Assembly (NCBI GenBank): GCA_016490735.1
Contig: JAEMWC010001006.1
Span: forward strand, 89,501-153,500
Length of the DNA stretch: 64,000 bases
Reading direction: 5' to 3'
Source: Pachyseris speciosa
Taxonomy: Eukaryota > Cnidaria > Anthozoa > Scleractinia > Pachyseridae
Below are positions 14,852 through 57,095 of the stretch, piece by piece. Every line of letters starts with the position of its first letter. The first letter of the stretch is position 1. The notes beneath the pieces are model-generated. The model was not told where the DNA came from. It did no database searches and saw only the letters and a program-made list of their open reading frames with translations. The position numbers and the translations under genes were made by a program.

Positions 14852-15177
14852 AGTAGTATAGTAGTTGGGGGTACCAGATCATAAAATGATCTGTTACCAA
14901 ACCCAACTACTATACTACTATCTGATGATACAATTCGATGATTTCAACATTTTGATCTCGTAGTTTGGAATCTATAGTTTATTAAAAATGCGTGACTTTC
15001 TCGGAAAATTACCTTCTTGGAAAAACAGTACTTGGGGGTACCAGCGCATTTTTACACATGATGGATTTAATTTATTTTATAGGGGGTATCAGTGCATTTT
15101 TACATTTGATGAAATCTATAGTTTACAAAAAATGCGTGACTTTCTCGGAAAAATCACCAAGCGTGACATTCTCGGAA
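14852..15177 (+). repeat. Element A left terminal inverted repeat
   Basis: Matches the reverse complement of 32,555-32,881 with only about seven differences over some 326 bp. The outermost 68 bp (14,852-14,919) form an imperfect palindrome whose outer 18-bp arms are perfect. Further in, a block of about 143 bp containing AATGCGTGACTTTCTCGG is present twice (near 14,970 and 15,113). A 27-bp unit AATCACCAAGCGTGACATTC continues past the TIR edge at about 15,179. Open frames across the TIR exist at both ends and are repeats, not supported genes. Confidence 0.93.
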
Positions 15178-16017
15178 GAATCACCAAGCGTGACATTCTC
15201 GGAAAAATTACCTTTGAATTTGTTGAAGCAATTAAAGATGCAGAAAAAAAATAGCAAAACTGGTGGCCACCAGAACCTCTCATGAGGGACTTAATTTGGA
15301 ATTTGAATCACCACCCGTCCCTCATGAGAGGTTTTTTTTTGTTTTTTGAATTCCCACCTCCACACCATCAGAGCACTGTTATTTATGTTTTTCCCACCTC
15401 CACTCCGCTCTGGCCCTATCAGACCCTCTTAGGGCTAAGTATTTATTTAATTGTTTTTTCACCCTCCGGCTTGAGGTTGAACCGGCACTTCTGACAAGCC
15501 TAAGCTCGAATATAGCTCTACCCAACAACCCGACACCATCCCAGGGTGATTTTTTGTGTGTTTTTAACCCATGGAATAACGGCGGGGGTTTTCGTTATTC
15601 GATGGGGTGGCTTGTATACATTTCGCTAACGAAAGGCCCCCGCTTTTTCCAATCGTTAGATACTTTGTATACAAGCCACACTTTATCTGTGTAAAAAAAC
15701 CCTTTTATATGCGTTTGTATTTTCATGTTTATGCTTGTGGTACATAAATGAAATTTTCAAAGATAAAAATTAATACGCATGTGTAAAAAGCGAAAAATCT
15801 AGAATCCCCTAAACATAGTGACGTAGTTTGATGACTCATTCGAAAGGGAACCCCCCCCCCCAACAAATGTTCCTGTCTCATATGCTAATTCTTCGGGTAA
15901 AGGGTCAGAAAAAGGGCAGTATTTTAAATTAAATATACAACAAAACTCGCAATACTATCCTGAACTAGGTAAATCAGCGGGTTTGAGGCGATAAAAACAC
16001 CGCAACAGCTGAACTTT
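15178..16017. other. Element A left non-coding segment with hairpins
   Basis: No gene recognised. It holds a strong hairpin, AACCTCTCATGAGGGAC (15,271-15,287) with its complement at about 15,314-15,330 followed by a run of T, which looks like a factor-independent terminator. A second inverted pair, GTGGCTTGTATAC (about 15,606) and GTATACAAGCCAC (about 15,669), is also present. The segment lies just past the 3' end of the leftward PolB gene. Confidence 0.55.
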
Positions 16018-19000
16018 TTAGATTTTATAATGTCCGTATGCATAGCTTGTCACGCCATTATCATGAATATACCGCTTATCATCGAAACAGCTGAGTGATA
16101 CTTTATTTATCTCATAACTTCCTAGTTGATGGTTTTGGCTTCTGATTGTTTTCATTCTATGATGCAACTGTTTATTATCAAATAGTGTCTCTTTATAATT
16201 TTCATGTTTGATGTTATTCTTAATAATATTCTTCTTAATTCCTTTAGCAGTCTTCCCTCCTTTTTGGTTGTCTTTCATATAGCTATACATTTTAGATCGT
16301 AGACCGATGAATTCACAAAATGGAACTCCTGCAGCCTCATCTTTGAATTTACCAATTACTTTTTTATTCGTCTTATCGAAATATGGAGAGTATTCTGGGT
16401 AGTCGCTGTTGTCAAATTTATTTTTATCCTTCCAGAAATTTCTATAGACGTCTTCGGTTTCCATTTCATAGGTCAAACTGTCTGTGTCTGTGAAGAGCAG
16501 CTTCGCCTTGTTTCCGTACTTCTCTTTAATGTAGTTGTAATGGAAATCATACATCAGTGTCTTGCTCAAATCCAAGATACACATCCCCACATATGCCGGC
16601 CTGTTTAGGGTGAGTGTTTCTTTAATCTTATGCACAGCTACCAAATTTTCATTGAAGATTTTACTGCTAACATATGTCGGCTTAGCAGCCATTTTTAATA
16701 GTTTCTTTTCATCGGTGACTAATCTGACGTCTACTCGCTTTCTGAGGTTTTCCATCGTTTTTTCCGAAGACTGAATTGTTCATGAGTTTGAAGAAGTCTT
16801 TCTCAAAGCCATTTTTAGCATTAGTTCTTTTCTGAGTGTTGAAATTAATATCTTGCTTCAACCATGCGGACTGATTGAACTCTAGAACTCGATGGACTTT
16901 AGTTATTTTCAAACCGAGATCAGTGTATAATTGGAGGTTCCTATAATGGAGCACGTATTTTTCTTTGTTACTCAATGTTGGTATTAGTTTATGTACCAGA
17001 CCAGTTGATATTTTATATTTCTTCGCGATGTTTTTAAGAAGATCATGCAATTCTTCAGGATATTTCATGTCAACTTCAAGTATCAAACCTTTGTTGCTAT
17101 CTTCTTGGTACTTTGCTAGGTCTAACTTGCTGATCTGCTTTTCTGTCAACCATTTGAAACCACCGGTTGGAAATATTGCCTCATAGCCCAACCGTATAGA
17201 TTATTAGCATCGAGATACATGATGTACTTCGAGGGCGCCTTCTCATCGTATTCTTTCATGTATTTATTGTTTGCTCTTCCATATCGGTTTGCTATATAAC
17301 TGATTCCTCCACGCATACCCTTTTCAATGAATTGAAACATGTCAATATCAACCATAAGCTCTAGTTTAATGTCAGTCATTTTAAGCATAGCATCCCACGA
17401 AAGCCCTGGAGACGTGAAATAATGACATGGGTCCAGTTTGTAGTATTCAAGACATGTTTTCCTGAAGTTTTCGAATACATCAGCTAACAGAAGGATGTCT
17501 GATTTAAGGTACAGGTCATGATACTCACCCATATTTTTTGAGAGAGAATGTATTCCACACATTCTGGGCATGTGTATAGTCTTCATCATTTATATGTTCA
17601 TCATTTAATATGCTGTAAAAGTCTTCTTTTGTTGGTAGCTTTTCATTGAATTTATCGAAACTGTCCATGTAGTCATATGGATAAACTCCTTTTTGTGACA
17701 TTAAATCAAGATCATTACCCTTGAACTCTTGAGAGGTGTATTTTAATGACTCTTTCGGTAGATTACTGACCAGTTTTTCCAAACTAGAGCTCATGAATTG
17801 GAAACTATCAATAAATGTTAGGTGATTACCAAGCATGAAAGCCATATACTTCTCCATGTTGTTACGTATAGCATTGACTGCCATTTGACACTTTTCACCT
17901 TTCTTATTTGTGTAAGTGTGTTTCTTAACAATGGCTCCAATCTCTTGCATTATGAAATGACTATCATAACCTCTCAAATTATGGAATATAACAGGTATTT
18001 TTATTTCTTCTGGGTTTACTCTGAGCTTTATATTACATTCTTGATGGGCAGAGCCTCTGTATTTACCAGTGATATGGCAAATTTTTTATTGCAAATGTGG
18101 CATTCTTTGGCTTTTTGAAATTCCTCCTCATTATCTTTTGTCATTCTCAGTGGTTTGTTGAATTCCTTTTTCATGATATTTTTGCAATATTTTACTTCCT
18201 CCAGCATAGCTTCCATAAATTTGTAAACGGCTTTTTCACCTCTGTATATTTGTGTTTGTTTCGTGTATTTGTCATCATAACAACAAACCAATTTGTAGCC
18301 ATATCCACAGTCTGTATGCTTCTGATAAGCCTCTGTATATGATTTGTTATTATTGGGTTGACAACCGTGTATTTTTTCAGTGATAGCTTCAAAATCAGCA
18401 TATATCACAAATGGTATTGGTTGTTGTTTATGAAAATTATTGAATTTCAGTGTATTATTGTTCTTATCAGGCATTTTAATAGCCTGAGTGCCATTCACTT
18501 GAATACAATTATCTTTATGATCATTCAGGACCCTTTCATAGCTAAAACACTGCAAACAATGCATGCAGAAATGCTTTCTTTCCTTTTGTCTCGTCTGATT
18601 GTACATTAACTTGTTAAAATCTTTGATCAACACATAGTGTTTGTTTTCATTTTCTGTTATCAGAAGGAGATTCATACAGTCTTCATATTTTTCTTTTGAA
18701 ACGTATATTGGATATGTTTGTTTATCGTCATAACCGAAAACATTAATGTTGATCTAATTTTGCTTTTCTATTTTATTGTACTGCTTGGTGGTTACTGGGA
18801 ATTCAATCCCTGTAAATCCAATTTTCCAATGTATTGTTTGTCTGATTTTTTAATCCTCTGTGGGTATTTCTCTTGTGGGTTCAAGTGTCTGATGTGACAC
18901 CATCGGAAACATTCATTATCCTAATTTTTCAAGTTAATTAAACCTTTGGCACTATTTCGTAATTCTACTGGTAGTTTGATATATGAGGAGCCTTTCATTG

Positions 19001-56255: not shown

Positions 56256-56808
56256 TAATACGAATAATCTTATCAAATCTCAACAATAGAATCTCAACCC
56301 AATATTGATCATAAAATTTAAGAGTCTTTTTTGATATAGTAACTATTATTTTATCAAATGGAAGATCAAGCATTAAAAATATTTTCTTTAACATAAATTT
56401 CGTACTTATCATCCTTTTACGATTCTTATTTACCAAGGGAAGCACTTTGTCTATCTCTTGGAATATTTTAAATATTTTATCCTTATCTTTTACAGAAATT
56501 TGAAATCCATTCTTTCTACATACACCATTTATCACATTTCCAATATGGTACTTGCGATGATATATCGATTTCCGCTGTATTTTATACATATTCTCATGAA
56601 AATCAACAAACTCTTTACAATAATCATAACCATGAACTGAACCACAATTTAGACAAACATTTTCACCATCATCGTTAAACATTTTCTGATTATCACAGCA
56701 AGGTGCTTTCACACTTTTAACAACTTTGACCAATAGCTGATCACAAAAATAACATGTGAACTCTCCCATATTCTTTAATTCATTGTGGATTACTGAATTA
56801 CAACTCAT
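56245..56808 (-). CDS. VLTF3-like zinc-ribbon transcription factor (element B)
   Basis: 187 residues: CYFCDQLL and CLNCGSVHGYDYCKE zinc-ribbon pairs, YKIQRKSIYHRKYHIGNVI, and a helical C-terminus KVLPLVNKNRKRMIS. It is collinear with A, with a four-residue insertion (GVCRK). The family assignment rests on the ribbon plus the tyrosine/arginine/histidine pattern. A late transcription role is inferred. Confidence 0.72.
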   Translation of the reverse strand: MSCNSVIHNELKNMGEFTCYFCDQLLVKVVKSVKAPCCDNQKMFNDDGENVCLNCGSVHGYDYCKEFVDFHENMYKIQRKSIYHRKYHIGNVINGVCRKNGFQISVKDKDKIFKIFQEIDKVLPLVNKNRKRMISTKFMLKKIFLMLDLPFDKIIVTISKKTLKFYDQYWVEILLLRFDKIIRIIKQ

Positions 56809-56840
56809 TCTATAATATTATGTGATATTTTATTTTCAAG

Positions 56841-57095
56841 TGATTGAATTCGCGGTTTTAGGGGGGTAATTCCGCCAAGCACTGTTTGAAGATTCAGATT
56901 CGCGATTTTAGGGGGGTAATTCCGCCAAACGCGATAATGCGTAAAAACCTGTTCATGATTTTCACCTGTCTTAAATCAAGTTGCTGTCAAACGCGATAAT
57001 GCGTAAAAACCTGTTCATGATTTACAAGTGAAAAATGCTGATTTTCCAATGTCTTAAAACTATATGTGAATTTTTGACATTACAGCCCACGTAGT
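56841..57095 (-). repeat. Element B right terminal inverted repeat
   Basis: Reverse complement of 37,957-38,211 with one mismatch. It is followed directly by the duplicated target TACCTT at 57,096-57,101. Confidence 0.96.

What the first reader, a model, noticed from the sequence alone, without database searches (positions are those of the whole stretch)
14852..57095. Two related Mavericks with the same virion genes but different replication modules and ends
MCP, penton, ATPase, protease, pVI-like, fibre and VLTF3-like genes are collinear and about 85-90% alike between A and B. The polymerases share no recognisable core: A has the canonical Maverick PolB (YLDANNLYG, TDTDS), while B has a divergent PolB joined to an SF1 helicase and a GIY-YIG nuclease. 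The TIRs are also unrelated. This suggests that replicase and its terminal origins are exchanged as one cassette between co-resident elements.
Basis: partly seen in the sequence, partly recalled or inferred. Interest (0 to 1): 0.88.

Follow-up and report, generated by a model that had tools for sequence, protein, structure and literature searches.

The report
Virus-like elements swapping replicase and ends
Two neighbouring virus-like elements in an animal genome, likely that of a coral relative, have closely related virion-side genes but unrelated DNA-copying enzymes and unrelated end repeats; in the copies sampled from the same genome the copying enzyme and the ends match each other while the likely capsid gene is shared by both kinds, so enzyme and both ends were likely exchanged together as one cassette.

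Summary
Confirmed and sharpened. A (14852-32881) and B (37957-57095) are Maverick/adintovirus-like proviruses with TIRs and perfect 6-bp target duplications. Their virion-side genes are related (MCP 89% aa); the replicases share only a ~25-residue N-terminal tail, and the TIRs are unrelated. A has the PolB of coral adintoviruses (80% to Corynactis coral adintovirus, through an open sister copy). B has a PolB-motif/SF1-helicase/GIY-YIG fusion with the architecture published as 'Tlr1-like helicase' in protist elements. Both replicase genes are broken here. In the 984-Mb host assembly, 19 of the 20 elements with MCPs nearest to B's carry A-type PolB or its N-terminal part; their MCPs are nearer to B's than A's is. 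The Tlr-type replicase appears in several places on the MCP tree, and AU tests reject congruence. At the nine right ends reached, 5 of 5 PolB elements have A-type and 4 of 4 Tlr elements B-type TIRs, although the adjoining VLTF3-like gene is shared by both kinds to within about 0-30 bases of the TIR. So replicase plus both ends behave as one exchangeable cassette. The left junction lies at the replicase N-terminus. The mechanism (left crossover, right TIR recopied) and origin specificity are inferred. New variant of a known kind.

The parts
14852..15180 (+). Element A left TIR (A-type; 27-bp tandem units at 15134-15212, reaching just past its inner edge)
   Evidence: terminus AGTAGTATAG shared by 5 of 5 PolB elements read
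16018..19808 (-). Element A replicase, broken: pieces 18921-19808 (N-terminal), 18028-18753, 17525-18085, 17146-17589, 16709-17200, 16018-16779; adintovirus-type PolB
   Evidence: family identified through open sister frame L102
19750..20082 (-). Element A small Cys/His-rich gene, homologous to B 42132-42344
20137..20991 (-). Element A BRO-N / VRR_NUC / C2H2 gene
21109..21351 (-). Element A truncated pVI-like frame
   Evidence: aligned to B
23322..24608 (-).
   Evidence: 88.8% aa to B
26560..27201 (+). Element A packaging ATPase
   Evidence: 87.8% aa to B's Pox_A32-like ATPase
31943..32494 (-). Element A VLTF3-like gene
   Evidence: Pox_VLTF3 E 7.5e-5, 23.0 bits against cut-off 25
32552..32881 (-). 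Element A right TIR (A-type)
37957..38211 (+). Element B left TIR (B-type); its inner edge includes the replicase stop codon
   Evidence: B-type TIR sequence in 8 of 9 Tlr-type sister left windows
38205..42040 (-). Element B replicase, broken (frames 40001-42040, 39348-40043, 38205-39347): PolB motifs, SF1-type helicase, GIY-YIG
42132..42344 (-). Element B small Cys/His-rich gene
42385..42888 (-). Element B VRR-nuclease-like gene (by resemblance to A's VRR_NUC gene; no Pfam hit)
   Evidence: short nt match
42916..43926 (-). Element B rve integrase with chromo domain
43836..44543 (-). Element B pVI-like gene with PLA2-like domain
46090..47373 (-).
49345..49986 (+). Element B packaging ATPase
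   Evidence: Pox_A32 E 1.3e-16
56245..56808 (-). Element B VLTF3-like gene; sister elements of both kinds stay homologous from here to near the TIR
56841..57095 (-). Element B right TIR (B-type)

Best explanation
A and B are two Maverick/adintovirus-like proviruses with related virion-side genes but different replicases and different ends, likely because replicase and both TIRs were exchanged between lineages as one cassette. A's replicase is the PolB of coral adintoviruses; B's has the Tlr1-like polymerase-helicase-nuclease architecture, here in an animal provirus with an rve integrase. Shown in this genome: replicase and MCP trees that do not match, TIR type that follows replicase type at every end read, and junctions at the replicase N-terminus and near the right TIR edge. 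Inferred: a crossover between co-resident elements in the shared left tract (integrase, VRR gene, Cys/His-rich gene, replicase tail) brings in a new replicase with the left TIR attached to it; the right TIR is then replaced by a copy of the left one, because each replicase would start only at its own ends and recombinants with mismatched ends would be lost.
For: Of 20 elements with MCPs nearest to B's, 14 match A-type PolB proper and 5 its N-terminal piece; 1 matches neither; the 18 of these PolB elements whose MCP DNA was compared are 96.2-98.1% to B, A is 89%. Nine Tlr-type elements have MCPs 92-97% nt to B. Tlr label needs 4 changes on the MCP tree, at least 2 forced by starred branches. 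AU tests: C891+C36 rejected in MCP data (p 2.1e-5), C891+C190+C912 rejected in replicase data (p 2.3e-4), B+C217 in MCP data (p 0.033). Right ends: PolB 5 of 5 A-type, Tlr 4 of 4 B-type TIR, Fisher p 0.008. Left ends: B-type in 8 of 9 Tlr windows, A-type in 2 and B-type in 0 of 5 PolB windows. Only an N-terminal tail is shared by the replicase families. Jumps between 99% and 75% identity near the left junction among Tlr elements. In 20 more distant Tlr-type copies the replicase core is 71-75% nt to B's while the integrase piece, found in 19 of 20, is 86-95%. Replicase stop codon lies inside B's TIR.
Against: The MCP tree is weak (19 of 27 inner branches unresolved, bootstrap not settled). The AU clades were chosen after seeing the trees. 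Nine right ends are few and share descent. In the last 32 bp before the right TIR the four Tlr elements are 91-100% alike and 72-91% to the PolB elements, so the right junction may lie up to ~30 bp inside the TIR edge and a second crossover is possible. The left TIR adjoins the replicase, so left linkage is expected anyway. Windows that found no TIR: C190 and three PolB left ends, C423 right end. Genome-wide TIR counts did not complete. Higher integrase identity may partly reflect slower change. No biochemical evidence that TIRs are cognate origins.
Confidence: 0.8

Rival explanations
1. The mosaics arose by ectopic recombination or gene conversion between integrated copies in the host chromosomes, not among free replicating elements; the cassette pattern then follows from where homology lies plus survival of complete copies.
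For: At least 98 near-identical MCP copies and at least 66 Tlr-type replicase places coexist in the genome; identity jumps are frequent.
Against: The four sister elements read at both ends, and A and B, have perfect 6-bp target duplications, so these chimeras were inserted as units; conversion in place would not be expected to change both ends together.
Confidence: 0.15
2. The exchange used two ordinary crossovers, one in the left tract and one just inside the right TIR, with no copying of the left end to the right.
For: The last 32 bp before the right TIR are more alike among the four Tlr elements than to most PolB elements.
Against: The rest of the last 170 bp does not sort by replicase type, and one PolB element (C611) is 90.6% to B there; the right TIR of B carries the replicase's last codons.
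Confidence: 0.3
3. An ancestor carried both replicases and lineages lost one or the other.
For: Both replicases sit in the same place and orientation and share a tail.
Against: None of the 20 replicase-place windows matched a Tlr-type replicase beyond the short tail region; two TIR types at the same elements would also be needed; MCPs differ by only 2-3% between kinds.
Confidence: 0.03
4. The two polymerases are fast-evolving orthologues.
For: Both have PolB motifs, and the literature derives the Tlr1-like palm from polinton PolB (PMC11071308, passages).
Against: Virion genes are up to 98% alike between kinds while the replicases align only in a tail; B's family adds helicase and GIY-YIG domains.
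Confidence: 0.02
5. Assembly artefact in a repeat-rich region.
For: Repetitive elements in a 2368-contig assembly.
Against: The combination recurs on other contigs with other target duplications (C217, C712) and diverged sequence.
Confidence: 0.01

Closest known systems
Adintoviruses / Mavericks (Polintons), e.g. Corynactis coral adintovirus
   Same: A-type PolB (80% identity through sister frame L102), rve integrase in B, packaging ATPase, PLA2-like pVI gene, TIRs and 6-bp duplications.
   Different: B replaces PolB with a Tlr1-like fusion and has another TIR; A has no integrase frame that I could see in its left part.
Tlr1-like helicase (pPolB-S1H fusion) of Tetrahymena Tlr1, PLVs and transpovirons
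   Same: PolB motifs with the first Asp of motif C missing, then SF1-type helicase, then GIY-YIG (description in PMC11071308 passages, and PMC12721341 section 15).
   Different: Found in an animal provirus among adintovirus-type virion genes. No direct sequence comparison with the Tlr1 or transpoviron proteins was made; TP and vOTU domains not tested.
Cafeteria EMALEs (mavirus-like endogenous elements)
   Same: Probable recombination joining one module to unrelated DNA (EMALE01/02), non-homologous replacement of replication genes, and TIRs regenerated after truncation (PMC8547959, passages, section 8).
   Different: There the 5' replication side was kept and the capsid side differs; here near-identical virion genes carry two replicases with matched ends, in an animal.
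Oxyrrhis marina PLV helicase-pPolB fusion
   Same: Helicase fused to PolB in an endogenous PLV (PMC12721341: abstract, sections 15 and 20).
   Different: Opposite domain order (helicase first) and exonuclease retained; regarded there as an independent fusion.

Membership tests
Maverick/Polinton-adintovirus | TIRs and 6-bp target duplication | tested here: met
   (A and B)
Maverick/Polinton-adintovirus | Packaging ATPase | tested here: met
   Pox_A32 in B; A homologue 87.8% aa
Maverick/Polinton-adintovirus | rve integrase | tested here: inconclusive
   met in B; no such frame seen in A's left part, which looks like loss
Maverick/Polinton-adintovirus | Adintovirus-type PolB | tested here: inconclusive
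   met in A, though broken; not met in B
Maverick/Polinton-adintovirus | Double jelly-roll MCP and penton | not testable with these tools
   no family or solved-structure match; structure prediction off
Tlr1-like helicase (B replicase) | PolB motifs A-C with motif C lacking the first Asp | tested here: met
   (NTDG nearly invariant in the family)
Tlr1-like helicase (B replicase) | C-terminal SF1 helicase | tested here: met
   (AAA_19 in 32 of 35 aligned members at E <= 1)
Tlr1-like helicase (B replicase) | C-terminal GIY-YIG or HNH nuclease (published for some PLVs) | tested here: met
   in B; 3 of 35 aligned members, many of them cut short
Tlr1-like helicase (B replicase) | No exonuclease domain; vOTU and TP-like domains before the palm | not testable with these tools
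   needs structure prediction, which was off
Tlr1-like helicase (B replicase) | Direct sequence homology to the Tlr1 or transpoviron protein | not tested
   no such sequence was compared

The most novel reading that the evidence does not exclude
In animal adintovirus-like elements the replicase gene and both terminal origins form one exchangeable unit: two unrelated protein-primed replication systems, one of them the Tlr1-like polymerase-helicase-nuclease, circulate over a common capsid and integrase chassis, trading places repeatedly through a shared N-terminal replicase tail, with the far end rewritten each time to match.
Probability: 0.6. Interest if true: 0.82.

Novelty: new variant of a known kind. 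Interest (0 to 1): 0.72.

Why it matters
Polinton relatives are known to have replaced replication genes over deep time, but here one genome holds a natural series with MCP genes up to 98% identical, two replicases and matched ends, so that junctions can be read to a few tens of bases. It makes the pairing of a protein-primed replicase with its terminal origin directly testable, explains why polymerase and capsid trees of such elements can disagree, and puts a Tlr1-like replicase into an animal provirus.

Tried and rejected
Viral-contig scans with the B replicase, the B MCP and three A PolB pieces found no relatives (5 scans). The phage collection had no match to the B replicase. Linking proteins to contigs by equal contig length gave one link between the Tlr-type list and the MCP list (3032292) and was dropped. 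PDB profile searches with the Tlr family and the MCP gave nothing meaningful. Structure prediction was off, so homology by fold was not tested. Recent polymerase orthology, ancestral double replicase and assembly artefact were rejected as told under rivals. Misses counted as misses: C1342 (no replicase match), C190 and three PolB left windows and C423's right window (no TIR). Genome-wide searches with either TIR and with the A PolB piece did not complete. The second MCP list was compared with the replicase list through 33 rows picked out by eye.
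Full report
What is there. The window lies in a 984-Mb genome (G000:C1006:89501-153500). Element A runs 14852-32881 with 330-bp TIRs (97.6% identical), element B 37957-57095 with 255-bp TIRs (99.6%). Each is flanked by a perfect 6-bp duplication, ATAACA and TACCTT. A self-comparison of the window shows collinear homology from A 21146 to 32522 and B 44338 to 56836 at 77-92% nt in pieces. MCP, ATPase and the 261-aa protein are 88-89% identical in protein, with dN/dS 0.06-0.17; the VLTF3-like protein is 75% identical and the first fibre gene 56%. 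Synonymous divergence varies from 0.24 to 1.1 between the well-aligned genes, so the virion block may itself be mosaic. Family matches obtained: packaging ATPase (Pox_A32), rve integrase plus chromo domain in B, PLA2-like domain in the pVI-like gene, an adenain-like protease below its cut-off, and a VLTF3-like match just below its cut-off in A.

The two replicases. A's polymerase gene lies in several frames; one piece matches DNA_pol_B_2 and the pieces show YLDANNLYG and TDTDS. A naturally open 743-aa frame of a sister element (L102) has 7993 scored relatives (all candidates scored; only those sharing most words were passed on), among them PolB of Corynactis coral adintovirus at 80%. B's replicase, broken by one frameshift and one in-frame stop, has 123 relatives at E <= 0.01, up to 1161 aa among the 120 listed. 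Of 35 aligned members, 32 match an SF1-type helicase model (AAA_19) and 3 GIY-YIG at E <= 1; many are cut short. PolB motifs A (DIxKxYP), B (KxxxNxxIG) and C (NTDG) are invariant or nearly so. This is the architecture published as Tlr1-like helicase or pPolB-S1H fusion, in which the first Asp of motif C is missing (PMC11071308, passages; PMC12721341, sections 15 and 20). I compared no published Tlr1 protein directly. In this genome some sister copies lie in open frames of about 1280 aa, such as C423 1277, C891 and C912 1280, C128 1299. Profile comparison of the two families aligns only a 25-column N-terminal tail, weak by itself (E 0.0069, probability 5.5%). Pairwise matches of that tail reach 64% over 73 aa (E 4e-19) and 83% over 35 aa. 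A tail pattern occurs in 18 of 120 Tlr-type and 58 of 120 PolB-type proteins, 0 of 120 MCPs and 0 of 1700 shuffles. In five of the 20 sister loci one frame is open over all 333 codons from the N-terminal piece into the PolB part, so the tail belongs to the PolB gene.

Replicase against capsid gene in one genome. For the 20 MCPs scoring next after B itself I fetched 1 kb at the replicase place: 14 matched A-type PolB proper, 5 its N-terminal piece, 1 (C1342) neither. The two nearest in DNA, C428 and C483, are 98.05% and 97.98% to B in MCP and have A-type right TIRs; A's MCP is 89%. From the other side, nine elements with replicases 82-99% identical to B's have MCPs 92-97% nt to B's. On the MCP tree of 30 rows (10 Tlr, 19 PolB, 1 unknown) the Tlr label needs 4 changes, at least 2 forced by starred branches; shuffled labels need 8.5 on average, so the label is clustered but not one clade; 19 of 27 inner branches are unresolved and the bootstrap had not settled. 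AU tests reject C891+C36 (replicase sisters) in the MCP data (p 2.1e-5), C891+C190+C912 (an MCP clade) in the replicase data (p 2.3e-4) and, weakly, B+C217 in the MCP data (p 0.033); the groups were named after seeing the trees, which the test's note warns about. In 20 more distant Tlr-type copies (L031-L050) the replicase core is 71-75% nt to B's, while the integrase piece beside it, found in 19 of 20, is 86-95%.

Ends. Left: 8 of 9 Tlr windows hold B-type TIR sequence, C190 none; of 5 PolB windows 2 hold A-type, 3 neither, 0 B-type. Right: of 8 windows fetched, 7 reached an end. PolB elements C2066, C611, C428 and C483 have A-type TIRs; Tlr elements C217, C712 and C891 have B-type; C423's window missed. 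With A and B: 5 of 5 and 4 of 4, Fisher p 0.008, not corrected for shared descent. Termini begin AGTAGTATAG in 5 of 5 PolB elements and ACTAC, followed by GCTGTAATGTC, in 8 of 8 Tlr elements whose terminus was printed (B, C217, C712, C36, C423, C250, C891, C912). The four sister elements read at both ends (C2066, C611, C217, C712) have perfect 6-bp duplications, so both kinds insert in the same way.

Junctions. Left: homology between A and B runs through the Cys/His-rich gene and intergenic DNA into the first codons of the replicase, to about A 19640 and B 41950. Among Tlr elements the stretch 41400-42900 shows jumps between about 75% and 99% identity to B. Right: B's VLTF3-side sequence matches Tlr elements up to the last base before the TIR (3 of 3) and PolB elements up to 1-11 bases short of it (4 of 4). 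Over the last 170 bp the tree does not separate the kinds (22% of bootstrap trees have one Tlr group), but in the last 32 bp the Tlr elements are 91-100% alike and 72-91% to the PolB elements, so the right junction may lie up to about 30 bp inside the TIR edge. B's left TIR contains the replicase's stop codon: the frame ends at 38205 inside the repeat 37957-38211, so the right TIR carries a copy of it.

How it likely works (inferred). In protein-primed linear replication (adenovirus and phi29 style, established knowledge) polymerase and terminal protein start at the two identical ends. A recombinant that gains a new replicase with its attached left end would start poorly at the old right end, and one whose right end was rewritten from the left would be kept. 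Both replicases here would be protein-primed by their published families; no call tested that.

Known and new. A probable module exchange, non-homologous replacement of replication genes and TIR regeneration have been described for Cafeteria EMALEs (PMC8547959, passages, section 8); cnidarian MCPs were noted as metazoan outliers (PMC10120064, passages); chimeric animal 'meldviruses' are reported in PMC11071296 (passages). In eight paper searches, judged from listings, abstract starts and the passages read, I saw no report of a Tlr1-like replicase in an animal Maverick or of a replicase-plus-TIR exchange at this resolution; most subscription papers are not in that library, and the 2016 paper on the fusion was not held.

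Noticed in passing
27213-28231 and 50245-54114: Fibre-like genes (collagen, YadA-stalk and T7-fibre-type matches) are the least alike part of the virion side; B has two long ones and parts of it match A in more than one place.
   Followed up: no
20137-20991: A has a BRO-N / VRR_NUC / C2H2 gene where B has a shorter VRR-like gene; BRO-like pieces reappear beside several Tlr-type replicases in sister loci.
   Followed up: partly
55770-56255: Small gene with a weak match to SLATT_1, a 2TM effector domain, below its cut-off (E 1.1e-4).
   Followed up: no
34036-35173: Reverse-transcriptase fragment between A and B (RVT_1, E 3.1e-7 at 34036-34722).
   Followed up: no
10038-10253: Foldback of two 107-bp arms, 100% complementary, 2 bp apart.
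   Followed up: no
60109-61312: Array of repeats 84-94% alike.
   Followed up: no
L102:60-2291: The coral PolB family carries a Recombination endonuclease VII match before the polymerase part (E 7e-6).
   Followed up: no
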